Source: Ianthella basta (taxonomy: Eukaryota > Porifera > Demospongiae > Verongiida > Ianthellidae). From it: DNA of 64,000 nt. The translations under genes were made by a program, and so were the position numbers. Each line of letters opens with the position of its first letter. The first letter of the stretch is position 1. Below, piece after piece: positions 39,533 to 63,640 of this stretch. The stretch spans positions 2,845,908 to 2,909,907 of the forward strand of contig OZ025870.1 in NCBI GenBank assembly GCA_964019415.1, read 5' to 3'. The notes beneath the pieces were generated by a model, which was given only the letters and a program-made list of their open reading frames with translations, did no database searches and was not told where the DNA came from.

Positions 39533-40150
39533 TAGTCTGACGTAGCCCAGACCCACTTCCAGCCATTTTATATTGTGCAAAGGGCAGGTAGTGGGTCTGG
39601 TAGATTTCATATGCGAGGCTGGTTCCTCCCACGCAGTACGGTAGGTGTGAAAATCATAACTTCACACCCACAAGTTTTGATAGCGGGAGGCCAGTGGGCT
39701 TACAACTATAGCCCCCGACGTTGGCATCGGGTACCCTCGTACGCGATCGTATACGGCTGGCAAAAGTACGTAAATAAGAGACTTACCAAAGTCATTCGGT
39801 AGTGACACGAAGACATCTTTCCCTGATATGAACTCGTCAATCGCTAGCAATTGCTCCTCCTTCAGCTTCTCGTAGCCGTGCTCCTTCGCAACTTCGGCGA
39901 TCAGCACTCGTTTACCACTGTGAAATCTGACGCTCTCTCGTTCGCCACCTCTGACGCTCGCTTCGGCCATCTTTGTTTACACCAAACTAACCCACAGCAA
40001 GCGTCGGCGAATATCAAAGCATCATTAACATTTCACGCCCACCGATTCGGGGGGGGGGGGCATTGAACACCTGGCAAATCTACCAGGCCCACTTCCTGCC
40101 CTTTGCGCAATATAAAATGGCTGGAAGTGGGTCTGGGCTACGTCAGGCTA
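39533..40150. mobile_element. TAGTCT TIR element 1 (618 bp), non-autonomous, carrying a RecQ-like fragment
   Basis: Terminal inverted repeats of about 70 bp start TAGTCTGACGTAGCCCAGAC and end ...CTGGGCTACGTCAGGCTA. Each terminal repeat holds an inner hairpin (CCAGACCCACTTCC paired with GGTAGTGGGTCTGG on the left). The target duplication is GCCTAGTGA at 39524-39532 and 40151-40159, and the empty site exists in the paralogous unit at about 37541-37549. A 9-bp duplication with long TIRs is typical of Mutator-like (MULE) elements, but no transposase is present. Confidence 0.85.
39662..39970 (-). CDS. RecQ-like helicase N-terminal fragment inside TIR element 1
   Basis: A 102-codon minus-strand frame reads from ATG through 'LKEEQLLAIDEFISGKDVFV' and SLPNDFGKSLIYVLLPAVYD. 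This matches the start of RecQ helicases: the Q-motif-like 'L...Q..AI..F..GKD.FVSLP', then Walker A, normally TGxGKS. Here Walker A reads NDFGKS, so the first Gly is lost and ATP binding is doubtful. A good donor (G|GTAAGT) lies inside the Walker A codons, so the ATG block may be a captured first exon. Motifs Ia to VI, RQC and HRDC are absent. Confidence 0.65.
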   Translation of the reverse strand: MAEASVRGGERESVRFHSGKRVLIAEVAKEHGYEKLKEEQLLAIDEFISGKDVFVSLPNDFGKSLIYVLLPAVYDRVRGYPMPTSGAIVVSPLASRYQNLWV

Positions 40151-40286
40151 GCCTAGTGATTGCTTCCACTTTTCATGTGCCTAATGTACAGTTCGGATAT
40201 TTTACGTTATGTAGGCATATATCACTTACAAACACATGCATCACTCAATTGCCCCAATACAATTAGCTACAGGAGCATACACTGTC

Positions 40287-40443
40287 CTAGGGCAGATCGA
40301 GAAACTTTTTGACCGGTTTCCAACGCATAAAGGTATAGCTATAAGGAAGTATACACATCATAAGACTGATACATGCAAATACTAGCCAGAGGTGATCTGA
40401 CCAGTTTCTGGAAACCTTGGAAACACCCCTGGATCTGCCCTTG
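40287..40443. mobile_element. AGGGCAGATC MITE, copy 2
   Basis: 157 bp with ends CTAGGGCAGATC and GATCTGCCCTTG, flanked by CTGTC at 40282-40286 and 40444-40448. The empty site is visible in tandem unit 2 (gcatacactgtcagttgc, about 37676). It is near-identical to 29254-29410. Confidence 0.8.
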
Positions 40444-41229
40444 CTGTCAGTTACATATCTACTTACGCAAATGTCACACTCCATCATTTTTATCTTTTTT
40501 GTGTATTATAGCAGGCAAAGGCAGCATTCCACTGCTCCAAAAGATTCCAGTTAGCCTGGGCCATCCCCTGATTGTATTAATCTCAGTTGGTCGTGTAGCT
40601 ATACGTGTGCGCGTGCGGCGATATCGCAGTCAGATTATCTTTACACACGATGCAGCCATTGTATACATATTTTTAACTGGAAACACGATGGAAGAGTGTT
40701 AGTATTGTAAGGCAGTGGCTGGTACGTTAGCTGTAATTGGCGTCATCGCGGATCGCCAGCGAAATTCGTACCCTAACCCTAACCCTGGAATCTATTAGAT
40801 TGCCAATGACAGCGGTAGCTGGATTGGGCTGTAGCCTGTAGCTATGTAGCTTGCTAAGTTTAGTTAGCAACTGTATAAAAAATACTAGCTAGTTGGTAAC
40901 TGGATCAATGTTTAAGACCTCGAAACCTTGTACATGAACGCACACGTACTCCAGCGCCTCCTGGTGTGGCCATAATTGCACGGTAAGTCAATCAAATCCA
41001 CTGTAGTGCCGTCTCTCTGTCCCACCCTTGGATTCCGAGTTTCACGTGACTGGGAACGCCTAGTTACTTAAATATATTCATTAATCTTCCTCGCACAGCT
41101 ATCGAAGTGGAATAATATAGGATGATGTTAAAGTTGAGGGGCGGAACAGCCGCTTTCCAGATTGAAATGGGAAGGTGGCATGGGATGAAGAGAGAGGAGA
41201 GGTATGCAAGGAATGTGACATTGTATTGG

Positions 41230-41550
41230 ATGTGATATTGTATTGAATGGAGATAGCATTGCTTACTTGGCTATATAGTGAGCCAGGTACTTATATACAC
41301 ACAGGGAATGGGAGATTTAGATAGCTAGCATGTGCAGGTAGGAATATACACTTTACCTATGGCTAGAAGTTTTCATAACACGTTGTGGCTAGCTGTATAT
41401 AAAAGCAGATAATTATGCATAGCAATAATATTAATACTTCAACCATATAGAAGCATTATGTTCTTAGTTTGGCTGTGCTTCATGTGGACAGCAAAGCCAC
41501 TACACTGTTGCACTTCAGCCTCAAATGTAAGCATATATAAAGTAAGGAAG
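41230..41550. repeat. duplicated region shared with 59.87-60.17 kb
   Basis: Diverged copies share landmarks: tattgtat.ggtgatagcattgct, tatagtgagc.ag.tacttat, and acttcaaccatatagaagcat(t/a)atg. The copy here keeps an open signal-peptide-like first exon (41458-41526); the 60-kb copy has a stop in it. Confidence 0.65.
41458..41526 (+). CDS. possible first exon encoding a signal peptide
   Basis: ATG at 41458 opens MFLVWLCFMWTAKPLHCC..., a short hydrophobic leader followed by TSASN, ending at a GTAAGC donor in phase 0 (69 nt). In the diverged paralogue at about 60.10 kb the same exon contains an early TAG. No second exon was identified. A secreted or membrane protein start is plausible but unproven. 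Confidence 0.35.
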
Positions 41551-41733
41551 TTCTGATTGCTACTGCCGCAAGATTGAACTATACATGTTCTTCATTGTCG
41601 TGGACAGTGGCTAATGCAGCGCTATACGTATACCTGGTTAAGCTATAATTTGCAGGCAGACTCAACATCTTTGAGCTATAATGTACATGGCTTTGCCCTT
41701 CAAGCTGCATTAAGACACATGCACGCATGCGCG

Positions 41734-41800
<67 letters not shown>

Positions 41801-42274
41801 TGTGACTCACTCACTACTGCAGCTGGACACAAGCATGCACACACATCAACTATAGCTGAGATCCTGTTTACAAACTGCACCCATGCACACTCACACATGC
41901 ATCAAGTTGATGATGAAATAAAGAAGTGACTGGGTTCATGATATTATGGATATAGCCAAACCTGCATGCATGGTAGGCAGAACGTTGGAGCGCATAGTTT
42001 TTCTACAATTTACATCAAAATCACTATTACTGCTTTATTTTTGGCCAAAGTCTTTCAACCAAAAACAATGTAATGAAGCTAATTGTGGCCATGGGCAAAT
42101 GATAAATCTATGAACACTTCTGGCATATTGCATGTATATGTTATATAGCTATATAGTGCTGCAAGTTCCAAATAAATGTAAGAAGGAGATAGCACAATGA
42201 TGGAAGATTGTCTTCAGTACACATTCCATGCATAAGCTCTATAATAATGATAACTGACCTTGTGTTCTCTGCAT
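41551..42274. other. no gene recognised; includes a (CA)n microsatellite
   Basis: A pure CA tract runs from about 41736 to 41798, preceded by gcacgcatgcgcgcacg. The rest is AT-rich intergenic DNA with nothing I can support. Confidence 0.6.
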
Positions 42275-42554
42275 GAATGGGGGCGGAAAATAATCATGTA
42301 AACCTTTAGATTGGGCTTTCAAACCATCAGATGGTATGTGGTTTTCACTGCCTGAATAATCTTCTTTGCATTAATGCATCACTTAATTTTAAAAGCATTA
42401 GTACATGCCTCAATGAATGGGGGTGAAACATAAACTGTAATCCTTTAAATTGGGCATTCAAATCATAAGATTGTACATGGATTTCACTGCCTTGATTACT
42501 ATTCTTTGCATTAGTGCATCACTTAATTAAAAAGTGTTAGTACATGCCTCAATG
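42275..42554. repeat. two tandem ~140-bp units
   Basis: The unit begins aatgggggcgg/tgaaa and ends gtacatgcctcaatg. The second copy begins at 42415. The copies differ by scattered substitutions. Non-coding. Confidence 0.8.
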
Positions 42555-43306
42555 CTTCACTGGACCATCGGTAAACTCTCTGGCTGCTGATCTCTCAGTG
42601 CATGAATATGATGTGCGTCTGGAGACAAGACAGTCTGGGACTTTCAAGTCTTAGGTCCACGTGACTAAGTGCTTATGTAGCTGGCTAGCTGTATGGTTAC
42701 ATAGTTAGCTATGTACCATCTTCCCATGCAAGCTCCCCATCCCTTCCTCATTCCACATCTCTTCCTCCCCCTCTCCTCCTCCTTTCAAGATCGTACTCCC
42801 CGTATATGCATGTACTGTAGTTAATGTTAGCATCTGCAGGCCATGCTGGTTTCCAGACAATATAGGGATATTGCTGGTTGAATATCAAACACTAAGCTCT
42901 AGCTCCTTTCCTCGCCCAGCAGTGCCTATATGTATAAGGGAACGATGTGACGCGAGAATGGCTAATGAAGATGAAAGTAGCCAGTAGGCCAAACTGGACT
43001 GCGGTTTAAGGTCAGGTGAAGAAATGCCAGCCGTGGGACCTTCAGTAGTTCTTCAAGATCACCGGAGCCATTTTCATGCTAAACAACTTTGAGATGGTGC
43101 GTGGCACTACAAAAAGTGCCCTGTTTTACCCAATGGCAGCTACCTTCAGCAACTTGCAGTGGCGGTGTTTTTCCTTCCATCAACTAGCACAAACACTCTA
43201 CTTGCACTCGGGGTGGTTACTCTCCGCAACTTGCACTGGTGGCCTTGTTTTATATATATATATAGCATACATTATTTCATATAATAGCTTGCATAGCACG
43301 CTAGTG
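42555..43306. other. no gene recognised; contains an extra CACTACAAAAAGTG end
   Basis: At 43105 the sequence cactacaaaaagtgccctgttttac appears once, about 200 bp before the same sequence at 43307. This is either a second element terminus or a partial duplication of the end. The remainder is unremarkable. Confidence 0.4.
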
Positions 43307-44171
43307 CACTACAAAAAGTGCCCTGTTTTACACAGTGGCAGTCATGTGTAAACTAGTGGTAAAACTTCAGTTCGCTGTAGTTTACCAAATGGCAAACTAG
43401 TGCTTGCCCACACTGGTATAACATGGAAAACCAACGTTTGCGTTTACTGTGCAAGGTAAAACAACAATGAATATCTAATAACCCACAGGAAATGAATAGT
43501 CATTGCATAATGAATCTCATTATTCTGGTACTGCAGGCTTCCTTATATACTAAGCTATGTGTAGCTTCAATATAAAAGTACTAATAATACACTGGATACA
43601 GGGTATTGTTGCAAATATAAAAGTAATAATTACAATTGCATATAAACAACATGTCTAACTTAACTGTGATTCACAAAACAACGTATTGCAGTTACAAAAG
43701 TACGGAGATCAGTAACAGGAACAATGTTGCGAAGATAAAGGCAGATGTGTTTACACCTTAGTTACAGTGTCATGATGATTGCAGAATGAGTACATACATT
43801 GCTCCTCTTCCAGGTTCTTTACTGAATTCTCTTCATTAAATGCACATTGGCTCTACATAGCAGTTAGGGGAAGAAAGGGAAATGGTGTAAGAGTTTTAGT
43901 ACAGCCATCCACCGAAACCACTGGGGCAACTTGCTTACCCAGCTCATAAGTGAAGAAATGCCTTCATCACAACTCAGCGCACATCAAGCAATGACAGTTT
44001 CACTGAGGAAACAAGTGCAATAAACCTTGTTAAAAGACATGCACTCAAAACAACATTAAAACTAAGCTCACATGGGGGATTCCCACAACTGAGCACAGGA
44101 CTATTACAGAAACACACCTGCACCTGCATACGTGCAGTAGAGATTGGTATGCTTACACAGCGCTGCTGTGC

Positions 44172-44500
44172 CTAATCAGACTTGGATTTGGTCTGTTGCT
44201 GCAGGCAAAGAGAGTAAGCCATTCAACCAGTCATTGTAGCTATATATCAGCTTGTCAGTTCATTATTATTAAGTTGCAAATCATACAGCAATGACAGCTC
44301 TGGCTCTCGTACCTTCAAGGAAGCTAAGAAATTCTTGGTTTCCGTGCTAGACGTCCGTGGAGGTGGAGCGCCCTGCAGGTATCACAGACCACAGCTAAAA
44401 GACAAGCCATGATTAAAGAACACCAAAAACAAGACGTAAATCAACTCACAGTGCGAAGTGCCTTTCTATGAAGTGTCACTAACTTGATTCTTCGTGCCAT
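44172..44500 (-). CDS. candidate three-exon micro-gene, 45 residues, no family recognised
   Basis: Minus strand: exon 1 44450-44500 (51 nt, MARRIKLVTLHRKALRT, donor GTGAGT), exon 2 44313-44372 (60 nt, GAPPPRTSSTETKNFLASLK, acceptor CCTGCAG, donor GTACGA), exon 3 44172-44198 (QQTKSKSD then TAG, acceptor TTGCCTGCAG). All three exons are multiples of three and join in phase 0. The product would be a 45-residue, very basic peptide without a membrane segment. The introns are short (77 and 114 bp). An ATG-rich, GC-elevated stretch upstream (44.5-44.65 kb) could be its promoter. It may be a host gene caught between transposon ends, or a chance arrangement. Confidence 0.4.
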
Positions 44501-45547
44501 AGTTCAGAAGATACTGCCTTGAACGTCTCTACTTAGGGGCGTAACCATCGCGCGCATTCTGTGCATCAAATAATGACGTCGCAAAACGTCATCAGTATTA
44601 AAATGGCTCCCATTACGCAATCGAAGAGAAACTCGGAGCCATTGCTCTGTCCACCCGCCGTTTGAGTTGTACTTTGGAATTCAAAAGCTTGGATACAAAT
44701 AATACCACAATATTAAGATTGTTTCAGTACTTTTGCAGCGTTTCATGTGCAGATAGTAGCTTTAATCGTTTTGATGGGATTGCGAAATATGGATTTGAGT
44801 GATTATCTATGCAGAGGGAAATCCATGGCAACTTAGAATGGCTGTGTAAAGGTGAAGGAATTATCTGTGGGACGTATTGTCCAGAAGAAAGCGTCCAGAA
44901 GAATATCTGATGTGTACAAAGCAGTAGGGTTGTAGGAATGTAGCTAAGTAGCTAGCTAGCTAGCAATTTAGCTAAATACTGTAGAAAGTAAGTTCTTGGT
45001 CATGCCTACAGTTAGCTAGCTATATTTTTCTGTCTCTGACTGCACTGATTAGCCTGTGTTACAGTATAATTATGCAGTGAACGCATAGCTGCATTGTCTA
45101 GCTATGTAAAGTGAGTGTGCTCTTGGCCACCTCTCCCTGCATAGGTAGCTATTATGTGTATGACTGGTTGGCCTAGACATCACTGAGGCTAACTGCCTAC
45201 GACTGCTATTATGAAGTGTTCAACACAGTTTGTAGATATGTGCTTTGAGAAAACTGTGCCATTGTACATGCTGTTATGTATTGTGATGTATTCTTGCCAT
45301 TTCAGTAGACAAGTGCTCTTACACTATATGATATTTTTTACTGAGCTAGGCTGAATAGAAGGTTGAGTAGTTCCATAGGTAGTAAATCTTCAGCATTAAT
45401 TGGTCTGTGAATGATTGAGTCGCGGTTGTTGTGAAGTGGGTGTAGGAAAGACACTTGTTGGCTATCTATAAGATGCTATTATAGCTAAATAGCATATCTG
45501 CTACTATTTTATTGTGAGTCTAGCTAGCTATAATCATCCTGTTTACT

Positions 45548-47100: not shown

Positions 47101-47251
47101 TGATATTCATGCTCCTACTGGAATGCGCAGAGGAAACTGCTGTTTTACCTTGGGTAAAACATGCTCAAGGTAAACTATAAGTAAACTAGTGATGACACCT
47201 TGCAGTAAAACATGGGAAAACAGGCCACTTTTTGTAGTGTATGCTGCTAGA

Positions 47252-47999
47252 TAGTCTGGCTTGCTAGACCGTCCCGTAAGCGCCCGGTAGGCGTGGAAGG
47301 GAAGGGACGGTCTAGCGGCAGTGTGGATTAAATAACACCTCTGCATTATCGTGCCAATTATTACGTCGCACCTGTCTACCGGCTGATCATTGAGGAGTCG
47401 TTTGAAGGGACCGTATCATTCGCTTTGAGTGCACTGCGCAAGTCAATGTTGGTCCTAACGAGACGTCAGAAGGAAGCTTTGAAGAGCGTCATCAGCGGTA
47501 AGGATACGTTCGTAAGCCTGGTGCCGAGTCACTGGACATGGGAAGTCCATCATATTCGAGTGCTTGCCGCATTGTTGCGACTGCTATGGAGGAATGTTCG
47601 GCACTACCTTCTGTGTTGGTAGTGTACTCTTTAGTCGCATTACCGCGTTGTAACAATCCTTGCGGAAGCACGGAGCTTCATTGTCTCTGCTTTCGGCGCT
47701 GCAGTTGAATGCTACGAGCTGCGAGAGAGCCTCACCAGCTGCTGTTAGCGTGCCTCACTTAACCAAGTAGTACGGTTGTTCTACGAAGCCACACAAAGAC
47801 AGCAGCAACGATCCGCCTCCGAAGTAATCGCACATACTTGCCCGGTCTTCTTCAATCGTCAATGAATACTATTACCCGGGATTCCGGGGAAACGGATCTG
47901 ATTGGTCGAAAAGGTGTTATTTAATCTATACTGCCGCTAGACCGTCCTTCCCTTCCACGCCTATCGGGCGCTTACGGGACGGTCTAGCGGGCCAGACTA
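47252..47999. mobile_element. TAGTCT TIR element 2 (748 bp), carrying a RecQ-like fragment
   Basis: Terminal inverted repeats of about 88 bp start TAGTCTGGCTTGCTAGACCG and end with the complement (...GCCAGACTA); they extend to attaaataacacct. Each contains an inner hairpin GCTAGACCGTCCC/GGGACGGTCTAGC. The 9-bp target duplication is GCTGCTAGA at 47243-47251 and 48000-48008. It inserted 12 bp from the right end of the CACTA-like interval. It has the same architecture as elements 1 and 3. Confidence 0.85.
47425..47640 (+). pseudogene. RecQ-like helicase fragment inside TIR element 2, frameshifted
   Basis: The + strand frame at 47425 reads 'LTRRQKEALKSVISGKDTFV' and SL, the RecQ Q-motif-like block. 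Walker A (TGHGKS) follows immediately, but in a second frame, and a motif Ia-like segment (PSVLVVYSLVAL) sits in a third. So the fragment covers more of the helicase than in element 1 and has at least two frameshifts. Confidence 0.6.
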
Positions 48000-48022
48000 G
48001 CTGCTAGAATGCAGCACGTCAT

Positions 48023-51361: not shown

Positions 51362-52105
51362 TCAGTACAATACAAAACCACCATACCGATCTGGTGGACG
51401 GTGTGTTCTGGTAGGGTAACGGCTTGGACATCGAGTGGCCATGTCTGGAACATCACGTTGACCAATTGAAGGACGTGCCCTGGCAGGGCAAAGACTTGGA
51501 GATTGGTGGGAGGCTGTGTCGTCAGCCTCAACAGTTTGAAGCTGCTTGCCAAACACTGGAGGTTCTGTGATTATCCCGGTAGGGGAAGTAGTGAGGGCAG
51601 GAGGTGACGGTTTCTCATCATCAGTGAATCGGGTCCCCTCTACGCATGGTTTCAATCGGTCAAAGTGAACAACCAAACGCTGTTTCCTTCCACGGGTATG
51701 TTGAATCCGGTAAGTGACATCAGACAACTGCTTCACAATGCGATAGGGCCCAGTCCAGGGATGATGCAGCTTACGAGATTGCCCTTTTGGGACAACCACT
51801 GAGTGCAGCCAAACTAAACTGTCCCGCTCATAGGGCTCTCCGTGGATCTTGCGGTCATAGAAATCCTTCTGTCTGGATAACTTCAACTTGAAGTTCTTCC
51901 GCACCCTCTCATAAGCAGAACCAAGCATCCTCTGCAGTGCAGCAGCATTTTCACTTGCCGGCTGGGGAGTGATGTCCGACGTACCATATGTGAGTTCAAT
52001 TGGGAGGCGTGCCTGTCTTCCAAACATGAGGAAAAAAGGCGAGTATCCAGTTGTTGGCTGCAGGCTGGTGTTGTAGGCCATGCATACTGCTCGTACATGT
52101 TCTTC
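51362..52105 (-). pseudogene. integrase C-terminal part of gypsy pol, downstream of an in-frame stop
   Basis: This frame is the same as that of pol and directly follows its TAA. It contains 'MAYNTSLQPTTGYSPFFLMF', a GPY/F-type module (HPWTGPYRIVKQL) and a Pro/Thr/Ser-rich tail ending DRYGGFVLY. There is no chromodomain. In an intact gypsy element this would be the end of integrase; here it needs readthrough to be made. Confidence 0.85.
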
Positions 52106-55100
52106 TTATGTATCATGATGGGTGCCAACCATGGTAGACAGCATGCTCAGGAGGGTACGGTTGAACCGCTCTACGAGTCCATCACTTTGAGGGTGATAGG
52201 GGGTTGTTCTTGTCTTCTTGATGTTCAGCAACCGACATACTTCAGCAAGAACTTGTGCTTCAAACTGGCGACCCTGGTCGGAATGGAGCTGCTCTGGTGG
52301 GGAAAATCGCAGGAACAACTCATTGGTCAAAGTCTTGGCCACGGTGGAAGCTTCTTGGTTTGGGATGGGATAGGCTTCCATCCAACGTGTGAAGTAGTCA
52401 CGTGCTACCAACAGGTATGAGTTCCCCTTAGGCGACTCGGGAAGTGGACCAAGGATGTCCACTGCCACCAATTGCATCGGGTACCCCACAGTGACGGGTT
52501 GCAATGGAGCCTTCCTCTTAGGGTGGGCAGACTTCCGGGTAGTGCACTGCGAGCAAGTCCGACACCACTTCTGCACATCGTTGAAGTGCCCAGGCCAATA
52601 GTACCTCTCCTTGAGTTTAGCCAGCGTCTTGTCTTCACCAAGATGACCCGACATGGTACCTCCATGGACATCATGTAGGACTTCCTCCCTCAAGGCAGTG
52701 GGGGTTACCAACTGTAAATGAGAAGTGTTCCCATCATTGGACTCAAACACTCTCCACAGTATGCCGTCCTGGACAATGAGTTGTCTCCATATCTGATGTA
52801 GCCGCCGATAACTGGGGCCATTGGCCAAGGACTCCGAAAGTGGTGGTTTCTGACCACTGTCTTTCCCTCTGAGAATGGGTCCCACATCTGGATCAGCAAG
52901 CTGTAAGTCCCTTAGTGAAACCTCAGATTGACCTCTGCATGAGACAGTAAGCACCAAGGAAGCAGCCTCTTCTGCGAACGGCGTCTGCAAGTGGGTCTCT
53001 CGGCCACATTGATGACAAGGCAACCTGGATAGAGCATCAGCATTAGAATGTTTCTTACCGGGTCTGTGGAGAACAGTAAAATCATACTCCTGCAACCTCT
53101 CCAGCCATCGGGCAAGTTGTCCTTCGGGTTCCTTGAACTTCCAGAGCCAGGTGAGGGAGCTGTGGTCCGTTCTCAATGTGAAGTGCGAACCCAACAGGTA
53201 CGGGCGGAAGTGCTGCACAAACGTGACTACAGCCAACAATTCTCGTCTGGTGACACAATAGCGTCTCTCCTGTTTGGACAAGACCTGGCTAGCATAGGCG
53301 ATGACCTGCTCCTGACCATTCTGGACTTGTGAGAGCACAGCTCCCATTCCCACATCACTGGCATCTGTGTCCAAGATGAATGGTTGGTTGAAGTCAGGGA
53401 AGGCCAAGATCGGTGCAGATACTAACCTCTGGCGGAGCTCCTGGAAGGCTGATGCACATTCAGCACTCCAACGAAATGAGCATGACTTCTCGGTTAGCCG
53501 GTGTAGCGGTTTGGCAATCTGTGCAAAATCCTGCACAAACCGCCGGTAGTAACTAGCCAATCCAAGAAACTGCTGTACTTCCCGGACTGACTGAGGTTCT
53601 GGCCAATTACTCACCTTCTCGGTTAGGGCTGGATTGGTTGCCACGCCTTGATCTGACACAATGTGTCCTAAGAATGCGACCTCCTTGCAAGCAAATGCGC
53701 ATTTTGTAGGTTTCAGCTTAAGGTTGGCACTACGCAGACGGTCAAAAACCTCAGCTAGATTTCTCAAATGGTCCTCAAAGGTCTTACCCATCACAATGAT
53801 GTCGTCCAGGTACACGAGGCAACTGCTCCACTGCAGTCCTGCCAAGACCGAGTCCATCAACCTTTGGAAGGTCGCTGGGGCATTGCATAAGCCGAAGGGC
53901 ATGACATTAAACTCAAAGAGACCCTCTGGCGTACAAAAGACAGTTTTGGGCTTGTCTGCCTTGTCCATCTCAACTTGCCAATAACCACTTAGCAGGTCTA
54001 GGGTGCTAAACCACTTAGCGCCAGCGAGAGTGTCAAGCGTATCATCTATCCTTGGAAGAGGGTATGCGTCTTTTCTGGTCACTGAGTTAAGCTCACGGTA
54101 GTCTACACAAAACCTGATACTGCCATCCTTTTTCTGCACTAGCACAATCGGGGAAGCCCAGGGACTCGTTGATGGCTGAATGATCCCCTTGCAGCGCATG
54201 TCCTGTAGCAATTGACTGACTTCTTGTCTACGGGCTGGGGGAATTCTCCTGATCCGTTGTCGGATAGGGCGGGCATCACCCGTGTTGATCTGGTGTTGCA
54301 CCTGGGCGTTTCTGCCGAAATCATCAGGACTGCTAGCGAAAATGTCAGCATAACTCTCTAGAAATGCATACAGTACCTCACGCTGCTCTGCTGTCAGTTG
54401 TTCCCCCACACGTTCCACTGTGTGCCACAAGTCCCCCTCCAGTTCTCGTGAAACGCTGAGCACTCCGCGACATTCCTGGTCTGAACACTCCACAACCTGG
54501 GAGGCCTCCACGGAGCTGGCTACAGCCACTCGACTGCCACTGTACAGAGTTACCTCTCCTTTTCCAGGGTTAAGGATGTGGACAGGGATCCCCTGCTGTG
54601 CTTGAGCAGTTACCACGGCTCGAGCTACTAGTACTGGAGACGAGACTGTCTCTCTTCCCTCCACTAACCAGATCCCACCCAGAACTGGGCCCTCAGGGGT
54701 GGCAAGTACTTCCATCTCACTCATGGCTGGGACCTTGGTCGTCACTGCAACACGCAATACTTTAGTAGGGCCGGGCGTACACCCGCCTCCTGCCTTGTTT
54801 AACGGCACCTTACCCCCTGAAAAGCGGAGTTCACCAGCCCCAACAGCTAGTGTGCAATCATGGGCTTCCAAGAAATCTAACCCGAGCAACGCTTCAGTGG
54901 TGATGTTGCTCAAAACAAAAATGCGGTGATCAAAATGTGTACCCCCAATGTTTATGCGCAACTCACAGGAACCATGTGAATCCAGGTTGTCTCCGTTCAC
55001 ACCAACAAAGGTCTGGGTACTGGCTTCAAGGGGAGGTCCATTTGGGCAAATCCGCTCCCACGTGTCTTTCCTTAGGATAGTAAAAGCTGATCCGGTGTCA

Positions 55101-55309
55101 ATCAGGAAGGAGACTCTTCCATTGTTGATAGTGGTGGCAACAAAATATGATGAATCGGAGACTGTAGAATATACAGTTGTCAGCGGAGGGCACTGCTTGG
55201 GCATTTCCACTTCTCCCTCGAACGTAGGCCCCACTACGCCGAGGGTCGGCCGTTTCCCGGCAACTTCTTTGCTGCACATCCTCGAGCATAGTGCCCTTCT
55301 TTGCCACAC
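52106..55309 (-). CDS. pol: gypsy pol polyprotein: protease, reverse transcriptase, RNase H, integrase (prematurely ended)
   Basis: A 1067-codon frame. Aspartic protease with DTGSA at residues 71-75. Reverse transcriptase with LPRIDD and catalytic YLDD at 500-503. RNase H with DTDAS at about 647. Integrase with an HHCC zinc region and catalytic Asp951, Asp1011 and Glu1047, a perfect D-x35-E spacing between the last two. The frame is -1 relative to gag and overlaps it by 76 nt, so its own ATG is probably not used; entry is by frameshift at 55252-55258. It ends at a TAA (52106-52108) after GTHHDT, 24 residues past the catalytic Glu, while the same frame stays open beyond it. All enzymatic motifs are intact, but the GPY/F module is cut off. 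Confidence 0.93.
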   Translation of the reverse strand: MWQRRALCSRMCSKEVAGKRPTLGVVGPTFEGEVEMPKQCPPLTTVYSTVSDSSYFVATTINNGRVSFLIDTGSAFTILRKDTWERICPNGPPLEASTQTFVGVNGDNLDSHGSCELRINIGGTHFDHRIFVLSNITTEALLGLDFLEAHDCTLAVGAGELRFSGGKVPLNKAGGGCTPGPTKVLRVAVTTKVPAMSEMEVLATPEGPVLGGIWLVEGRETVSSPVLVARAVVTAQAQQGIPVHILNPGKGEVTLYSGSRVAVASSVEASQVVECSDQECRGVLSVSRELEGDLWHTVERVGEQLTAEQREVLYAFLESYADIFASSPDDFGRNAQVQHQINTGDARPIRQRIRRIPPARRQEVSQLLQDMRCKGIIQPSTSPWASPIVLVQKKDGSIRFCVDYRELNSVTRKDAYPLPRIDDTLDTLAGAKWFSTLDLLSGYWQVEMDKADKPKTVFCTPEGLFEFNVMPFGLCNAPATFQRLMDSVLAGLQWSSCLVYLDDIIVMGKTFEDHLRNLAEVFDRLRSANLKLKPTKCAFACKEVAFLGHIVSDQGVATNPALTEKVSNWPEPQSVREVQQFLGLASYYRRFVQDFAQIAKPLHRLTEKSCSFRWSAECASAFQELRQRLVSAPILAFPDFNQPFILDTDASDVGMGAVLSQVQNGQEQVIAYASQVLSKQERRYCVTRRELLAVVTFVQHFRPYLLGSHFTLRTDHSSLTWLWKFKEPEGQLARWLERLQEYDFTVLHRPGKKHSNADALSRLPCHQCGRETHLQTPFAEEAASLVLTVSCRGQSEVSLRDLQLADPDVGPILRGKDSGQKPPLSESLANGPSYRRLHQIWRQLIVQDGILWRVFESNDGNTSHLQLVTPTALREEVLHDVHGGTMSGHLGEDKTLAKLKERYYWPGHFNDVQKWCRTCSQCTTRKSAHPKRKAPLQPVTVGYPMQLVAVDILGPLPESPKGNSYLLVARDYFTRWMEAYPIPNQEASTVAKTLTNELFLRFSPPEQLHSDQGRQFEAQVLAEVCRLLNIKKTRTTPYHPQSDGLVERFNRTLLSMLSTMVGTHHDT

Positions 55310-56001
55310 TTGTGGCAGACGACAGGGGCTGATGGATCTCTGGATTGGGGTTGACGGTCTCTTCGGGTTGCAGATGACTGAGTTTCCAGACGCTCGAGGC
55401 GTTCAAGGATGGTTGACATGGTCTCCAGCAAGGCATCTGGTCTTCCCCCAACTCGATCTACAGACGCTTCTTCCACCCGTGCTACACGCTGCTTTGGAAG
55501 CAGGTACGACTCTAGCTCAAGGGTAACACTCACCGCGGCCTCTACTGTGGTAGGGTGTCGCTGTTTCACGGCAAAAGCAATCTGGGGATTGTCAATCTGA
55601 CCCAGATACTGCTGTAGGGCCAGCAGCTGTCGAGCGTCTGTGCTCAAGGTGGGGAATGCCCGATCAGCTAACACTCTGAGTTCCTCGCCAAAATCGGCCC
55701 ATCCCTCAGACTTGCTCTTCGCGCGCGTGTGAAACTCCGCCACGTACAAGGCACGCTTGCTCTCTGGTTCAAAGCGTTCGCGCAGCGCCTTGACAGCCTC
55801 CTCGTAGTCTCCCTGCGCTGCCTCGGACAGCTGCTTAAATGCCCGTTGGGCCCGTCCTGTCAGGCGGACCTTCAGCCACAGTAGCTTCTGTTCAGGGGTC
55901 CACTTGTTCACCGCCGCGACGTTACCGAAGTGGTCGAGCCACTCATCCCAGTTCCCATCGCCTGCATACGCGTCAGGAAGGACAACTGGTTTCCCCGCCA
56001 T
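55234..56001 (-). CDS. gag: gypsy gag (capsid and nucleocapsid)
   Basis: 255 residues from the ATG at 56001 (MAGKPVVLPDAYAGDGNWDE...), the first ATG after the primer-binding site; the frame is also open upstream into the LTR. The N-terminal ~200 residues have the retrotransposon-gag helical pattern (W..W...F...A...W, then GRAQRAF, and LRERFEP). The C-terminus has one CCHC zinc knuckle, CHKCGKEGHYARGC. It ends at TAG 55234-55236, inside the frameshift stem-loop region. It packages element RNA. Confidence 0.9.
   Translation of the reverse strand: MAGKPVVLPDAYAGDGNWDEWLDHFGNVAAVNKWTPEQKLLWLKVRLTGRAQRAFKQLSEAAQGDYEEAVKALRERFEPESKRALYVAEFHTRAKSKSEGWADFGEELRVLADRAFPTLSTDARQLLALQQYLGQIDNPQIAFAVKQRHPTTVEAAVSVTLELESYLLPKQRVARVEEASVDRVGGRPDALLETMSTILERLERLETQSSATRRDRQPQSRDPSAPVVCHKCGKEGHYARGCAAKKLPGNGRPSA
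55235..55258 (-). promoter_or_regulatory. -1 programmed frameshift signal between gag and pol
   Basis: On the minus strand the heptamer G GGA AAC occupies 55258-55252 in exactly the gag phase (X XXY YYZ), and slipping by -1 enters the pol frame. One base later GCCGA-CCC-TCGGC can form a hairpin, and a second hairpin CGTAG-TGGGGC-CTACG contains the gag stop. This is the classic layout for gag-pol recoding, though the spacer to the first stem is shorter than usual. Confidence 0.8.
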
Positions 56002-56010
56002 TCCTCCAAA

Positions 56011-56029
56011 AATCCTGCCGACTACGCCA
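56011..56029 (-). promoter_or_regulatory. primer-binding site complementary to tRNA-Ser
   Basis: On the + strand AATCCTGCCGACTACGCCA equals the 3' end of an animal tRNA-Ser with its CCA, so on the element strand the site is TGGCGTAGTCGGCAGGATT. It lies 2 nt inside the 5' LTR. Primer use by tRNA-Ser is inferred from this complementarity over 19 nt. Confidence 0.85.
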
Positions 56030-56031
56030 AT

Positions 56032-56305
56032 TGTAGAACGCTGTACAACTCGTTGGGGCTGGAAAACGGACGGGCATGCAACGAACACTTCGCGGGCACA
56101 AGTCAACAATCAATGAAGCAACAAGGTGAACCAAACCTGTGAGCACTACAGGGTCTCTGATCGTGACTGACTAAGGTACAACAACAACCGGATGATCACA
56201 GAGTTCTAATCAGGTGTGGATACATAACTTTTTAAATTACAGATACACATGTACACAACACAATCATCCACACACAGTTAACACAAGGGTCCACACAGTG
56301 TCACA
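56032..56305 (-). repeat. 5' LTR
   Basis: 274 bp, TG...CA, identical to 51055-51328 by eye. It should contain the element promoter; no TATA box was obvious to me (an AT-rich ctttttaaattac lies near 56228). Confidence 0.95.
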
Positions 56306-56375: not shown

Positions 56376-56394
56376 CACACACACACACACACAT

Positions 56395-56444
<50 letters not shown>

Positions 56445-56510
56445 ACACACACACACACACACCACATATGCTCCGGTTACAAAGGCCCCAAGACACACAG
56501 ACACACAACA

Positions 56511-56602
<92 letters not shown>
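56376..56602. repeat. compound (CA)n microsatellite
   Basis: Two long CA tracts (about 56376-56461 and 56514-56602) are separated by a 50-bp unique stretch containing atatgctccggttac. Long CA frames read as false Thr-His/Val-Cys ORFs on both strands. Confidence 0.95.
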
Positions 56603-56606
<4 letters not shown>

Positions 56607-56659
56607 GACAGACAGCTAGACCACTACCATATAGGGTCACTATATCACATCCGTCCACC

Positions 56660-56860
56660 ACCTCCACACCCAAACTTCACAGTGCAAGTAACAATGGGAC
56701 TACCACATGTGATAGTAGAGTAAATGTGGTAGTTGGAGGTAGAAAAAGACTACCAGTGCAAGTAACAGAGGGTCAGAACCACATATGCCAGTAGAGTAAC
56801 TAGCTGGTGGCAGAATTGACCAACAGCACAAGTAGCAGAGGGTTAGGACCACATGTAACT
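56660..56860. repeat. fragment of the palindromic repeat family
   Basis: Units such as agtgcaagtaaca(a/g)....accacatgtg..agtagagtaaatgtggtagttgga(g/t) match the ~70-bp subrepeats at 57.04-57.24 kb. It lies just outside the palindrome, suggesting local duplication of its end. Confidence 0.7.
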
Positions 56861-57017
56861 AGCTATATTATATCTCTATAGTGTGCAATTGTATGTAGTT
56901 TAGTTCTCAGTGACTGTAGAACTTCTGGTATATACGTGTGTAGCTATACGTTGTATGTTGTACTTCGAAGAATTGATCATTTTTCTGAGATTAGAAAAAA
57001 TGTATAATACCACCGCC

Positions 57018-58305: not shown

Positions 58306-58735
58306 AATACGCATAATTACAATGGTATGCAAATCTTCAAAGCAGTGTATACTATATCTGCAGTGATATGTGCTGTGAAGTGCCAGGCTCTAATCTCTTA
58401 CAAATTGTTCTCATAATGATATGTTGCATACTGCATGGTTGGAGTGATCATCACAGATATAATGGGTGTGCTCACTGTGGCAACTAATTCATGCCTATAT
58501 TGGGTGTGAACATCAGTCTATTTTTTAACAGTGTTGGACTGGGAATAAAGCACGAGACTTATAATTTTTGGCCTGAACAGAGGCCCAGGCCTCTATTTTT
58601 GAGGCATATTGACCATTGTCAAGTGATGATTGGGCTTGAATTTCAACATATCCACACTCTAACACGTTATGTGTGTGATTAGTGGAACCCTTTCCCTGTT
58701 CCTCACGCTTACTTGCACTCCATTCTCTTTTTCAG

Positions 58736-59081
58736 ATTGTGTTTGACAATACTGCAGTGAGCGGTGCTATCCAAGTGGCAGTGATGGCTGAGCCAACTGT
58801 TTTTGATTGCAATGCCAACCAGAAGAATGATCAGTTTTGTTAGTTGGAGTGTGGGTGCAACTGTGTGCATGTGTTACCAGTGATGTCCATTGAACATGAA
58901 GTTTGTAATCTGCCATGAAGTATAACCTCCTTGTTCATCTCTCTCTTCTGCAACCCACCAATGCAGATGATGATGTGTTTAGGTGATACGTGGCCTTGGA
59001 CATAATTTATGTGTGCTTGTCACAGTCCTGGTGTACTCCTTCCTGATCATAATTGTGCTTAATCATTGACAGCTGCAGGCC
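58736..59081 (+). pseudogene. mucolipin fragment D (luminal exon plus damaged TM2 exon), opposite strand to the array
   Basis: 58736-58838 is a 103-bp exon, exactly the length of its counterparts in copies B and C, with FDNTAVSGAIQVAV and FDCNANQKNDQF, a TTTTTCAG acceptor and a GTTAGT donor. The next block, 58967-59081, aligns with the TM2 exon (VALDI, then VLVYSFLI) but has an in-frame TGA at its sixth codon and a frameshift. No other exon was found nearby. It is an inverted, dispersed and decayed copy, closer in sequence to B than to C at the luminal exon. Confidence 0.75.
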
Positions 59082-59247
59082 GTTAGGCAGCTATATGCAT
59101 ACAGTATACCTTACACCCAATCACTCACCACGTCATGCTTCCCTTGAGATGCAACACCCGCACCTCCATTTTCCTTTCCTTTCCATTCCCATATATTTCA
59201 ATGCCATCCAAACTGATGAGCCTCCACTGCTACAATTCTTTTACCTT

Positions 59248-59374
59248 ACTATACTATGCTATACTATGTTATGCTATGTTATGCTATGTTATGCTATGTT
59301 ATGCTATGCTATGCTATGCTATGCCATGCCATGCTATGCTATGCTATGCTATACTATACTTTATACTATACTAT
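59248..59374. repeat. (TATGC/TATGT)n five-base microsatellite
   Basis: About 125 bp of ctatg(c/t)tatg(c/t) pentamer repeats with graded variants (actat at both edges, catgc in the middle). Confidence 0.9.
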
Positions 59375-59869
59375 AGTACAAGCAAGCACTTTTCTGCCTG
59401 TTGTCACATGATAGCGTCCAGTCTTCACCAATGAATGTCTCAACTGAGACATTGATTGGCGAGATAATTATAATAATTATGTATTGCACTGACGTCCTGT
59501 TTAGTACTGTACATACATGTGTAAGCATAAATTTATTATTATAATAGTCAATTGTAACAATTATTGTTGAGTAGAGAAATATGTCCAGTCAAGGCTATGT
59601 ACTGCAGTGTATAGACAGCATTCATGGGCCTCCTTTGTCTCCATTTGCAATGCATTTGTTGTCAAAGTTACTATAGCCTAAACAAGCCATTCATATGGTA
59701 AAAACACCCTAAGTGGAAACCCTGTAGCAGCAACTACTGCAGTACATCATTTGCATCTAGCTATTTACGCTACCTTGTAATAAACATACATACTGTATAA
59801 ACCACAGCTATTTGTTTTGTGCATTTTGTACAAGAAAACGGTTGCAATGTGACCCAAAGTTTGAATACA

Positions 59870-60170
59870 ATAGTATTGTATGGTGATAGCATTGCTGGCT
59901 GCAGCTATTATATATATAGTGAGCTAGCTACTTATGCAAGGAATGGGAGAATTAGTTAGCAATATAGCATGTATATATAGGAATAAACACATGGCCTGTG
60001 GCTAGACATTCATATATTATATAATGTGGTGTAGCTAGCTATATAATACAAGGCAGATACACTTATCTATACTACTTCAACCATATAGAAGCATAATGAA
60101 TGTACTTTAGCTGTGCTATGTATAGCCAGCCAAGCCACTGCAATGTCACACTTCAGCCTCAAAAGACAGA
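59870..60170. repeat. duplicated region, diverged partner of 41.23-41.55 kb
   Basis: It aligns with 41230-41550 through the same landmarks. The signal-peptide exon is broken here (atg aat gta ctt tag). Further on, 60.50-60.61 kb resembles the left edge of the window (1-130), so several copies of one upstream region occur in this locus. Confidence 0.6.
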
Positions 60171-60905
60171 GTACCTTTTGGGGATTTTAGAGTTCCATGT
60201 GCCTACATGCGCCGTCACTATCAAAATATATTATATCATGCTAATTATATTCATTAACTTTGACTACATTATACATGTGCATAACATTATTGGATTTCTG
60301 CTGAAAAGGAATTGGTAGAACTTAGTGGATCTCTACAACTGATATCTTAAATCAGTGATTGTGGTTTCTTTACATGCAGTGCCATAATACTAATAGCTTG
60401 ATAACTGATACGTATATAAATATCACTCTCATTACCTATCGCATGCTGCATGCACCTATGCATGCACATTGTACATACCCTCTTCTCCTCTTTACGCCAT
60501 GTGCATGTTTAAGCACTAGGAGCTTTGGTTGTAGCTTGCTTTACAACAGGTTTTGGTACAACTAAACAAAGAATATTCAGCAAGAGTGTATAACATACTG
60601 TTGATAAACATATACATTGGACTGCTTAATGAACACAAAATGCCGTCCATTCTGTTCTCATGCCTGTAAATTGCTTGCATGCCTCAAGCTACACCATAGC
60701 AAGAACAGTACAGTGCACAATGTTATATACGTAGAACAACATACAACTTATATTATATATGTTATGTGCTGTGAGGTAGAATTATACCTCACAGTATATT
60801 CTCATTCTACTATTATATGCACTCAAAAATTGTCATACAGCAGTATAGTAGCTCAATTCATGAGCTTACGTGTAGTGACTGCTGCATTCTAGTTTTGCAT
60901 TCTAG

Positions 60906-61345
60906 TACTAATGAAAGGTAACATTCGGAACTACACATGGTAAGGAAAGAAGGGGGAAGGGGAAAATGGCAGTGAACCAGACCAGCACCGGTAACCTCCA
61001 GATGTTTCGCCGACTCTTTAGCAGCTGGGTCACTGGTCACCGCCAACAGCCACCAATCAATTCCCTCCTTATATACCGAATCTAGGAAATTAGCATTTCC
61101 GAGTGTCACTGATTAGTCAGTGCCCGGTGTGAGAGTTTCAAAGGAGGCTCTGGATAGAGCCCGCCCACATCGGTATATAAGGAGGGAATGGATCAGTGGC
61201 TGTTGGCGGTGAGCAGTGACAAGGCTGCTAAAGGGTCGGCTAAAGATCTGGAGGTTGCCGGTGCTGGTCCGGTTCACTGCCATTTTTCCCCTTCCCCCCT
61301 TCTTTCCTTACCATGTGTAGTTCCAAACGTTATCTTTCATTCGTG
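60906..61345. mobile_element. foldback element with ~175-bp arms
   Basis: Left arm 60906-61079 and right arm 61171-61345 are inverted copies with scattered mismatches, including ccgccaacagccac and tttccccttccccc. The loop is ~90 bp. The tips are actaatgaaaggtaac / gttatctttcattcgt. No transposase. Confidence 0.85.
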
Positions 61346-62542
61346 TCACCATGGTACATAGACCAATTGCACTGTACATGTGTGTTGTAACAATTAATGG
61401 TATAATTGCATAATCTGTGACATTGTGCATTAATCAGATGTTACGTTACCCCAACATCATGACTGATTGTGCATTTCATGCCAATGATCTAGCTGCTATT
61501 AGTATAGACACATATTAAGCTGCATTATAACATGCTTTGGGTGACTATTTATGTATGCCTACTGTTAGCATTAATTGGCACCGAAACACTTTTAAACCTT
61601 TGTATGTAGGAGCTCAAGATTAAGACTATTTTTGCTTACTATAGCTAGGCATGCAACACATGATTGCATATAATTATAACCCCTTCTATAATTATATAGC
61701 CTGGTATATGAAAAACGTTATGGCTCCCTGGTTCCAACACCTATAGCCATAATCATAGAGTACTTTGAAAGTTGCATTGATTATAATTATTATATAATTT
61801 TCAATTGACCCTTACTTTCTATTACATTATCTGCTAAATTAGTACATTGATGGCAATAAGAATGGTGGTTATTTTACATAATACACTGAGTGTTGCAATT
61901 GCTACCATGAATGCACTGTATGCATGGGCATGATCGTGATTGAAACATTGGAATTGGGAAAGCACACAAAATCTACTATAATCATACAAAGATATATGCA
62001 ATTGCAAGGAATATATAACAAATTTATTGTGTGCACAGTATAGGTTTCATACATCACAACATTATGTCATCATTATGCAACATCATAGTTATTTTCCCTT
62101 TAAGAATAATTATGCCATTGTATAATTAATATATTAGATACATCCACTTCGGCATAATGTGCGTGCACATGAATTGTACTGCTAGCTATACAGCTAAACC
62201 ACTATTATATAATAATAATTATAATAAGGTGAGTCACATAAGGAGATACTAGCTATAACTGACTATATCGTAGTATTATGATATCATGGTTGTGTGTCAA
62301 GAAAGAGGGGCACCATCTTCAGGGGGTGGATAGGGGGGATCAGCTATAGGGAGGGACAAAACATAGCTTACACATGTACACATACACGCCTTTAGATGTA
62401 ATTGAGCATACGTTCGTGTATGCTCATGTCACCCAATTCTTCCTCATGTGGATTACTGTGGATATCGACCTCAACATTATGACCTGTGTATTGAAAGGTT
62501 CAGGACCATATATACATGTATACATGCACGACAATGCTATAT
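61346..62542. other. no gene recognised
   Basis: AT-rich sequence with several short TA-rich palindromes (for example 62.20-62.23 kb). There is a modest 12-bp inverted pair, catacgttcg/cgtgtatg, near 62410. No supported exon. Confidence 0.4.
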
Positions 62543-62965
62543 GTGAGTGGATTTGATAAAAGGTCCCACTTGTCGCTATGTATAAAGTGTCGTTGTGGTC
62601 AAAAACATGCAGCCGAGTGATGTTTTCAGTAAATTTGGATTATTGCGTCTTTCTTACCTGTAGTATTGTCCCAACATCCTGGCCAACTTTGAAACCCCTA
62701 GTCCTTTCCAGCGCTTCAAACCAGGAAGAATAGTTACGCCGTCGCCATTTGTACGGATATAGTAATGGAAGGATTATGGGCCATTTTCTCATAATTGTAT
62801 CGGGCATATTTTCGTACTTTGAGCAAGTGTATCTCGGGAACAGGAGCAGCTATTGAAGAGCAACAAAGTGCAACAAACAGCTCATCTATACTGTGCTTCT
62901 ATGCAGTACCACTAAATCAAAATTGACAAATAGTGACACGTGGACCTTTTGTCAAATCCTCTCAC
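62543..62965. mobile_element. TIR element (~423 bp), non-autonomous
   Basis: Ends GTGAGTGGATTTGATAAAAGG and its inverted, slightly diverged copy (ccttttgtcaaatcctctcac); arms of about 40 bp. The interior is unique and non-coding. The target duplication is unclear because the flanks are TA-rich. Confidence 0.65.
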
Positions 62966-63027
62966 TTAATATATATGCACTAGATGGTTTGGTATGATCT
63001 AACTATAATAAATACCATCTGCAATAC

Positions 63028-63640
63028 TAGTCTCGTCCCCAGACCCTTCCCGCGGTGGAGGAAGGGTCTGGTGAAAGTGGGCAGGAAGTTTGGGCACAAT
63101 GGAATGTAATTATGGGCGATGACGTAATACTGTGTGTGATTAATTACGGTTTCTCTGACTCTTCGATCGCGAGTTACTATTCTGTGCGGAGCAGGGGACT
63201 CACAACGATGACAATTGAGGTAGGGCTGGTGTACATTGCTAGTGCTGGTGGTAGGGCTGTGCGGAGAACATCGTAAACGGCGGGCAGCGGAGCATAGCAG
63301 AGCGATTTCCGCCGCCTGTTGACAGACTTACGAAGACGTCTTTGCCGTAAACGAATTCCGACACTGCCTGGTACTGCTTGTCCTTCAACTGTCTACATCC
63401 AAGCTCTTTAGCTGCCCTGGAGGTGGCTGCGCTCACATCTTCAACTGCGAATCTGCTAACGTACGTACTCGTATTATAACTCATTCGCGAGGTGAGAAAT
63501 TGCGCAATATTTTGCTACTAGCAATCTGATTGGCGCTGCCCACATTTCGGCAGTGGTCACGAGAACCTGCCTATTTTCACCAGACCCTTCCTCCCCTCGC
63601 TCGCTCGCGCGCGCTTCGGAAGGGTCTGGGAACGAGACTA
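63028..63640. mobile_element. TAGTCT TIR element 3 (613 bp), carrying a RecQ-like fragment
   Basis: Ends TAGTCTCGTCCCCAGACCC and GGGTCTGGGAACGAGACTA. Each terminal repeat has an inner perfect 12-bp hairpin CCAGACCCTTCC/GGAAGGGTCTGG, with loops of different length. The 9-bp target duplication CTGCAATAC is perfect (63019-63027, 63641-63649). It has the same design as elements 1 and 2. Confidence 0.88.
63239..63484 (-). pseudogene. RecQ-like helicase N-terminal fragment inside TIR element 3
   Basis: The minus-strand frame from the ATG at 63484 reads RAAKELGCRQLKDKQYQAV then SEFVYGKDVFVSLSTGGG, the RecQ Q-motif-like and Walker A start. Directly after STGGG the frame breaks: the expected Lys-Ser and following residues continue in another frame (SLCY..LPAVYDVLR) after an apparent 1-nt loss. 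No later helicase motif is present. The N-terminal extension (SAATSRAAKELG) differs from that of elements 1 and 2. Confidence 0.65.

What the first reader, a model, noticed from the sequence alone, without database searches (positions are those of the whole stretch)
39533..63640. Family of short transposons with a 9-bp target duplication, each carrying a fragment of a RecQ-like helicase
Elements at 39533-40150, 47252-47999 and 63028-63640 share termini TAGTCT/AGACTA (AGGCTA at one end) and perfect 9-bp target duplications (GCCTAGTGA, GCTGCTAGA, CTGCAATAC). Each holds an N-terminal RecQ-like segment (Q-motif-like block plus Walker A), but the three segments differ in sequence, orientation and mutations. 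Three independent occurrences in 24 kb argue against chance. Either an autonomous parent encodes a RecQ-type helicase, or this family repeatedly captures host RecQ first exons, as Pack-MULEs do.
Basis: partly seen in the sequence, partly recalled or inferred. Interest (0 to 1): 0.92.

Follow-up and report, generated by a model that had tools for sequence, protein, structure and literature searches.

The report
Deletion relics of helicase-encoding DNA transposons
The three short elements are most likely shrunken, non-autonomous copies of DNA transposons (AcademH type) that themselves encode a RecQ-type helicase beside a putative transposase, so the RecQ pieces are leftovers of the parent transposon's own gene and not captured host exons.

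Summary
In detail: three elements with perfect 9-bp target duplications, each with a RecQ N-terminal segment. They belong to three families, with 17, 34 and 30 listed copies that reach both ends (lower bounds).

Three complete 5.4-5.9 kb elements have TAGTCT/AGACTA ends, perfect 9-bp duplications, a RecQ-type helicase gene and a DUF6589-type putative transposase gene (L031, L063, C7:4974315-4979705); a fourth, in L032, is joined to a short element. Genome-wide, 26 of 40 transposase places lie within 6 kb of a helicase place (0.13 expected).

Element 47252-47999 is a decayed deletion derivative of the C7 kind of element. A sister family is a single 5.1-kb deletion of L063. Fragments group with transposon helicases, apart from canonical RecQs, and drift neutrally (omega 0.90-0.96).

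Nine-to-ten-bp duplications plus a helicase match the published AcademH lineage (PMC10045372 passage): a new member of a known kind. A paired inverted motif inside 13 of 19 ends tested may be worth following. Parents of elements 1 and 3 were not found, the search for canonical host RecQ genes did not complete, and the transposase fold could not be run.

The parts
39533..40150 (-). Non-autonomous element 1 (family F1, 618 bp, 75-bp terminal inverted repeats); strand given is that of the RecQ remnant
   Evidence: TSD and ends; 17 listed copies reach both ends within 10 bp, this one included, plus shorter ones; 75-bp TIR 95%
39524..39532 (.). Target duplication, left copy GCCTAGTGA
40151..40159 (.). 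Target duplication, right copy GCCTAGTGA
39692..39901 (-). RecQ N-terminal segment of element 1 (Q-motif-like block, Walker A reading LPNDFGKS here, motif Ia IVVSPL), inside an open frame 39662-39970
   Evidence: Pfam DEAD E 4e-4, below cut-off; majority of 21 family rows reads LPTGFGKS
47252..47999 (+). Non-autonomous element 2 (family F2, 748 bp); deletion derivative of an element like C7:4974315-4979705
   Evidence: 34 listed copies reach both ends and 6 more cover 625-713 bp
47243..47251 (.). Target duplication, left copy GCTGCTAGA
48000..48008 (.). Target duplication, right copy GCTGCTAGA
47455..47642 (+). Decayed RecQ N-terminal segment of element 2 in three frames (LTRRQKEALKSVISGKDTFVSL / GKSIIFECLPHCCDCYGG / SVLVVYSLVAL); broken also in the majority of 10 family rows
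   Evidence: DNA match 73% over 114 bp to the helicase region of the C7 element
63028..63640 (-). Non-autonomous element 3 (family F3, 613 bp); strand is that of the RecQ remnant
   Evidence: 30 listed copies reach both ends within 3 bp, this one included, and 6 more lack 42-59 bp at one end
63019..63027 (.). Target duplication, left copy CTGCAATAC
63641..63649 (.). Target duplication, right copy CTGCAATAC
63192..63421 (-). RecQ N-terminal segment of element 3, frameshifted in this copy
39547..39600 (.). Paired inverted motif in left end of element 1 (arms at 15-32 and 51-68 of the element)
   Evidence: 0 of 300 shuffles reach the score
47263..47316 (.). Paired inverted motif in left end of element 2 (arms 12-24 and 53-65)
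63036..63074 (.). Paired inverted motif in left end of element 3 (arms 9-23 and 33-47)

Best explanation
The three elements are MITE-like, non-autonomous members of three families of AcademH-type DNA transposons. Shown: a complete element is 5.4-5.9 kb, has inverted ends TAGTCT...AGACTA, duplicates 9 (rarely 10) bp on insertion, and carries two genes, convergent in the complete elements: a multi-exon putative transposase gene (DUF6589 core) reading in from one end and a RecQ-type helicase gene that starts a few hundred bases inside the other end. Shown for one sister family (F5) and, less exactly, for element 2: internal deletion removed the middle and left both ends plus the helicase's first coding stretch. 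Inferred for elements 1 and 3, whose parents I did not find. Inferred mechanism: insertion with a 9-bp stagger by a transposase supplied in trans by complete elements; the helicase probably opens or remodels the ends or the repair intermediate; the RecQ remnants in the short elements have no function of their own.
For: Complete elements with both ends and a perfect 9-bp duplication: L031 3599-9512 (5914 bp, with a 91-bp element inserted near its left end), L063 538-6477 (5940 bp), C7:4974315-4979705 (5391 bp); L032 3668-9482 is a fourth, discussed below. L031 helicase: DEAD 4.5e-25, Helicase_C 3.6e-14, best solved chain 1oyw 2.7e-47 (that 1oyw is E. coli RecQ is recalled). The L063 and C7 helicases were found by tblastn with it. 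Transposase exon: DUF6589 1.9e-32 in L032, 7e-31 in L063. 26 of 40 transposase places within 6 kb of a helicase place, 21 convergent, 5 same strand, 0 divergent, 0.13 expected (some pairs are near-copies of each other). F5 (782 bp) = bases 1-345 plus 5482-5940 of L063 at 93% and 90%, one junction. Element 2: ends 90% and 81% to the C7 element, helicase stretch 73%, same order and orientation. Tree: element 2 with C7's helicase (100/99), F5 with L063's (100/98), three canonical rows apart (94/94). Neutral drift: omega 0.90 (0.63-1.28) for family 1, 0.96 (0.70-1.32) for family 3. Breakpoints differ between families. Duplications with at most one mismatch at 19 of 20 fetched copies of families 2 and 3.
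Against: No 5-kb parent of elements 1 or 3 was seen among the listed matches (40 of 176 and 40 of 182 candidates scored). Elements 1 and 3 both lose homology at the same codon (IVVSPL), which I do not explain. A first codon test that counted every cell and included the divergent row L019 gave omega 0.60 for family 1 and 1.21 for family 3. The transposase fold was never accepted by the queue, and no solved chain matches its profile, so a DDD/E core is not shown here. In one search no duplication was found at 12 of 30 loci. L032 proper has no duplication of its own: GATGCCCGA lies at its left end and GTCCGACCC at its right. In L037, L038, L039 and L062 I found no ends with a duplication around the large element, and the J36 left end is incomplete.
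Confidence: 0.93

Rival explanations
1. Pack-MULE-like capture: the short elements repeatedly picked up first exons of host RecQ genes.
For: Several families each hold only an N-terminal piece of a RecQ-like protein. The genome's own BLM, WRN or RECQL orthologues were not compared, because that search did not complete.
Against: Complete elements of the same kind encode the whole helicase beside the putative transposase. Fragments of element 2 and F5 are sisters of those helicases, and the three canonical rows fall apart. By eye the fragments share the longer stretch between Walker A and motif Ia of the transposon helicases (rows printed). F5 is a single deletion of an L063-like element.
Confidence: 0.02
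2. The truncated RecQ frame was kept because it makes a short helicase peptide that regulates transposition (a repressor, as internally deleted P elements are recalled to make).
For: Majority sequences of families 1 and 3 read through an intact Walker A. All six families of 550-800 bp met here carry the stretch, though most loci were brought in by a RecQ query. The first codon count gave omega 0.60 for family 1.
Against: With the divergent row L019 dropped and shared changes counted once, omega is 0.90 and 0.96 with intervals that span 1. The majority of family 2 is already broken in frame. Family F7 (415 bp, four copies met) has no RecQ match.
Confidence: 0.04
3. These are KolobokH-like elements (a RecQ helicase downstream of a Kolobok transposase).
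For: KolobokH encodes a RecQ helicase (PMC9587614 passage). 5 of 26 pairs here lie on one strand.
Against: Kolobok duplicates the 4-bp sequence TTAA (same passage). Here 47 different 9-bp duplications were collected with no fixed sequence.
Confidence: 0.01

Closest known systems
AcademH lineage of the Academ superfamily (Kojima 2020, Mob DNA 11:15; paper not held, known here only through passages of PMC10045372 and PMC10799480)
   Same: 9 or 10-bp target duplications and an encoded helicase (PMC10045372 passage); DEAD and Helicase_C domains (PMC10799480 passage); animals and fungi (its title, in the reference lists of both)
   Different: I could not compare sequences with the published families, so whether RecQ type, convergent gene order and the paired inverted motif were described there is not known to me
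AcademX
   Same: Same superfamily; Academ elements curated in molluscs average 5565 bp (PMC10294476 passage, which does not separate the two lineages)
   Different: 3 or 4-bp duplications and a nuclease where AcademH has a helicase (PMC10045372 passage)
KolobokH
   Same: Transposase plus RecQ helicase (PMC9587614 passage)
   Different: TTAA duplications; found only in fungi according to that passage
MITEs and other internally deleted class II elements
   Same: Both ends kept, middle lost, many copies
   Different: Nothing unusual; they keep helicase coding sequence when the deletion starts beyond the first few hundred bases of that end

Membership tests
AcademH | Target duplication of 9 or 10 bp | tested here: met
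   9 bp at all three window elements and at three complete elements; at 19 of 20 fetched copies of families 2 and 3 with at most one mismatch, one of them 10 bp
AcademH | Encodes a superfamily 2 helicase (DEAD + Helicase_C) | tested here: met
   Pfam on the L031 helicase; RecQ-type chains best in the PDB; helicase beside 26 of 40 transposase places
AcademH | Academ-type DDD/E transposase | tested here: inconclusive
   The core matches Pfam DUF6589; that this is the Academ transposase is recalled, no Academ profile was on hand, and the fold job was never accepted
AcademH | No XPG-type nuclease gene (its absence separates it from AcademX; the name XPG is recalled) | tested here: inconclusive
   No nuclease among the Pfam matches of the exons scanned; not every open stretch was scanned
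KolobokH | TTAA target duplication | tested here: not met
   47 different 9-bp duplications
Pack-MULE | MULE transposase and captured host gene fragments | tested here: not met
   Pfam gives DUF6589 and no MULE domain for the exons scanned; for F5 and element 2 the fragment comes from the transposon's own helicase
Helitron | No terminal inverted repeats and no target duplication (recalled) | tested here: not met
   75-bp and 89-bp inverted repeats in elements 1 and 2 and 9-bp duplications

The most novel reading that the evidence does not exclude
In this AcademH-type lineage the encoded RecQ helicase and the paired inverted motif found inside most ends tested (arms near 11-24 and 52-65, different in sequence between families but self-complementary within an end) may form one working unit: the end is opened into, or recognised as, a hairpin-like structure that the helicase unwinds during excision or gap repair. 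That would give the helicase a cis target in transposition.
Probability: 0.1. Interest if true: 0.55.

Novelty: new member of a known kind. Interest (0 to 1): 0.3.

Why it matters
It shows, in one eukaryotic genome, complete transposase-plus-RecQ elements and the deletion derivatives they leave behind, so RecQ pieces scattered through such genomes need not be read as captured or duplicated host repair genes. Two copies that are 99.5% identical over 5.9 kb (L031 and L032) point to recent spread and offer a place to ask what a helicase does for a transposon of this kind.

Tried and rejected
Rejected: chance; host-exon capture; a kept coding function for the fragment (against this, one search gave 0.60 for family 1 before L019 was dropped and shared changes were counted once); an exon end as the common end of the fragments: in the L031, L036 and L037 helicases the alignment runs through that codon. 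In L038 there is an inserted stretch with GT...AG ends, a likely intron, a few codons before it, so an intron near that place exists in one family. Breakpoints differ between families.

Corrected on checking: I first took L032 3243-9482 as one element and the 415-bp family F7 as its transposase-side end. One search shows an F7 copy (3243-3658), a 9-bp spacer, and the element proper (3668-9482). The rows 'L032 left' are therefore the end of that F7 copy.

Led nowhere: parents of elements 1 and 3; a solved chain like the transposase (0 matches); papers that hold 'DUF6589'; Kojima 2020 (not held). No search for canonical host RecQ orthologues was answered; the row L064 in the tree is a RecQ-like protein of this genome and may not be an orthologue of BLM, WRN or RECQL. 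Tree rows: F1_L012 was dropped because its pattern did not match; q_L035 is in no group; element 2 fills 48% of the columns.
Full report
What is there. The window lies in a 209-Mb genome of 96 contigs whose name is not given. The nearest named relatives of the helicase are from the sponges Amphimedon queenslandica and Ephydatia muelleri, so a sponge is likely (inference). A scan of the whole window finds these three and no other, none in the reversed sequence, and almost none in 20 shuffles.

Three families, not one. As DNA queries, elements 1, 2 and 3 list 17, 34 and 30 copies that reach both ends within 10 bp (each query's own copy counted), at 85-92%, 88-99% and 80-88% identity, besides shorter ones; only 40 of 176, 40 of 534 and 40 of 182 candidates were scored, so these are lower bounds. 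Of 20 copies of families 2 and 3 fetched with flanks, 15 have a perfect 9- or 10-bp duplication, 4 one mismatch and 1 none. Element 2 and L041 share their duplication and so are copies by segmental duplication; L051 and L052 probably are too. Of the 30 loci brought in by the RecQ fragment, 18 show an element with a 9-bp duplication (element 1 itself among them; L011 and L017 share theirs) and 12 do not. Median divergence from the family majority is 3.6%, 3.1% and 5.7% for the 21, 10 and 14 rows of families 1, 2 and 3. Among 47 different duplications, some around nested or composite units, G leads in 45% and C ends 47%.

The complete elements. Among the RecQ-like places in the genome (150 scored of 583 candidates), long open frames and neighbouring transposase matches led to complete elements with TAGTCT/AGACTA ends and a perfect 9-bp duplication: L031 3599-9512 (5914 bp, including a 91-bp element inserted near its left end with its own duplication), L063 538-6477 (5940 bp) and C7:4974315-4979705 (5391 bp). 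L032 holds a fourth, 99.5% identical to L031 over 5.86 kb. It lies at 3668-9482 and is joined through a 9-bp spacer to a 415-bp F7 element at 3243-3658; the perfect duplication GTCCGACCC flanks the pair, not either part, so the two may have moved as one unit (inference). In L031 the helicase has DEAD, ResIII and Helicase_C domains, matches RecQ-type chains best in the PDB, and starts 351 bp from the right end on the minus strand. On the plus strand a multi-exon gene runs towards it. Its core matches DUF6589, as do all 33 listed homologues, and a 702-residue homologue carries the blocks VGDN, GGDQLT, GDWHA and EHLNR in one protein. That these are Academ transposase motifs is recalled.

Helicase and transposase belong together. 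Clustering the matches gives 40 transposase places and 58 helicase places; 26 of 40 transposase places have a helicase place within 6 kb, against 0.13 expected under even spacing; 21 pairs are convergent, 5 on one strand and none divergent, and 14 transposase places stand alone. Several pairs are near-copies of one another, so they are not 26 independent cases.

How the short elements arose. F5, a 782-bp family met beside the others, matches L063 at bases 1-345 (93%) and 5482-5940 (90%) with a single junction: one deletion of about 5.1 kb. It keeps the start of the helicase at one end and, by eye, the zinc-finger-like start of the transposase gene at the other. Element 2 matches the C7 element at its left end (90% over 89 bp), in the helicase 5' region (73% over 114 bp) and at the right end (81% over 91 bp); its right end also matches the C7 left end inverted (83% over 139 bp). 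F7 (415 bp, no RecQ match in four copies) combines about 305 bp of the helicase-side end with about 95 bp of the other end of the L031/L032 type (93% and 89-90%); the helicase starts 351 bp in, so this deletion falls before the gene and explains why F7 lacks RecQ. The RecQ remnants end at different places: IVVSPL in elements 1 and 3, beyond it (SALMLDQ) in one F4 copy, FATLP in F5, residue 137 in F6. The simplest reading is repeated internal deletion: RecQ is kept when the cut lies beyond the start of that gene.

Not host exons, not kept for function. In a 26-row tree of the N-terminal stretch, element 2 pairs with the C7 helicase (100/99), F5 with L063 (100/98), and families 1 and F4 go together (94/86); the three canonical rows (plant, bacterial, and a RecQ-like protein of this genome) are apart (94/94). 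The fragments need at least 3 label changes on starred branches and are one clade in 0 of 200 bootstrap trees. The alignment is short and 12 of 23 inner branches are weak. The genome's own BLM, WRN and RECQL genes are not in the tree (searches not answered). Codon tests: the first, counting all cells with the divergent row L019, gave 0.60 (family 1, 21 rows) and 1.21 (family 3, 14 rows). With L019 dropped and shared changes counted once, family 1 gave 0.90 (0.63-1.28; 20 rows) or 0.93 (0.65-1.37; 15 rows) and family 3 gave 0.96 (0.70-1.32; 14 rows). Family 2 is broken in frame already in the majority of 10 rows.

A regular feature of the ends. Many ends hold an inverted pair of short motifs, for instance CCAGACCC...GGGTCTGG, with arms near 11-24 and 52-65 from the terminus. 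In a free search of 110 bases, 10 of 21 ends score above the best of 60 single-base shuffles (scores 11-14), and six mid-element controls score 5-7. In a search confined to that position, 13 of 19 ends have p under 0.01 against 300 dinucleotide shuffles; the other 6 (both F5, both L063 and both 'L032' rows) have p 0.02-0.09, and in one of them the best pair lies elsewhere. The F7 right end has only a 4-base pair. The arm sequences differ between families but stay complementary within an end. Two inverted binding sites for the transposase explain this as well as a hairpin does; the data do not separate them.

Known or new. A passage in PMC10045372 states that AcademH makes 9 or 10-bp duplications and encodes a helicase; a passage in PMC10799480 links DEAD and Helicase_C domains to AcademH. 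The original paper was not held. Of seven papers that hold the word AcademH, I read passages of two. The titles and abstract starts listed by searches show no paper on RecQ-bearing short Academ elements, but the library lacks the key paper, so I claim no priority. I file the finding as a new member of a known kind, with the transposase class itself not proven here.

Noticed in passing
L031 3599 and L032 3243 (left flanks): L031 and the L032 pair (F7 plus complete element) sit one base apart in the same target (TGTCCGACC / GTCCGACCC) after a repeat whose two copies are about 95% alike, while the elements are 99.5% alike; this suggests a favoured target site or later exchange.
   Followed up: partly
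L032 3243-9482: A 415-bp F7 element, a 9-bp spacer and a complete element share one outer 9-bp duplication, as if the two had moved together as a composite.
   Followed up: partly
L063 475-7982; L031 3611-3701; L039 4497-5687: Elements of this kind are nested in one another, each with its own 9-bp duplication, including a 91-bp element inserted near the end of a complete copy.
   Followed up: partly
L037; C6:7518037-7520475; C6:7530990-7533428; C10:153491-160512; C3:4512262-4518634: In 5 of 26 pairs transposase and helicase lie on the same strand instead of convergent (two of them 3.8 kb apart), so more than one gene order may exist.
   Followed up: partly
L064, L065, L066: Three closely similar copies of a different RecQ-like gene; in L064 the helicase follows a region that by eye resembles a ubiquitin-like stretch and a B-box-like zinc region.
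   Followed up: no
L037 5541-7400: Open frame with an AIG1/MMR_HSR1-type GTPase domain downstream of a transposase-helicase pair.
   Followed up: no
window 51362-56109: Large reading frames on the minus strand that by eye are a Gypsy-like retroelement.
   Followed up: no
window 30415-33331: Frames that by eye look like a LINE-type endonuclease and reverse transcriptase, split into three pieces.
   Followed up: no
window 47252-47999 and C3:2679874-2680623: Element 2 has a 99% identical copy 213 kb away with the same target duplication, so that stretch was probably copied by segmental duplication and not by transposition.
   Followed up: partly
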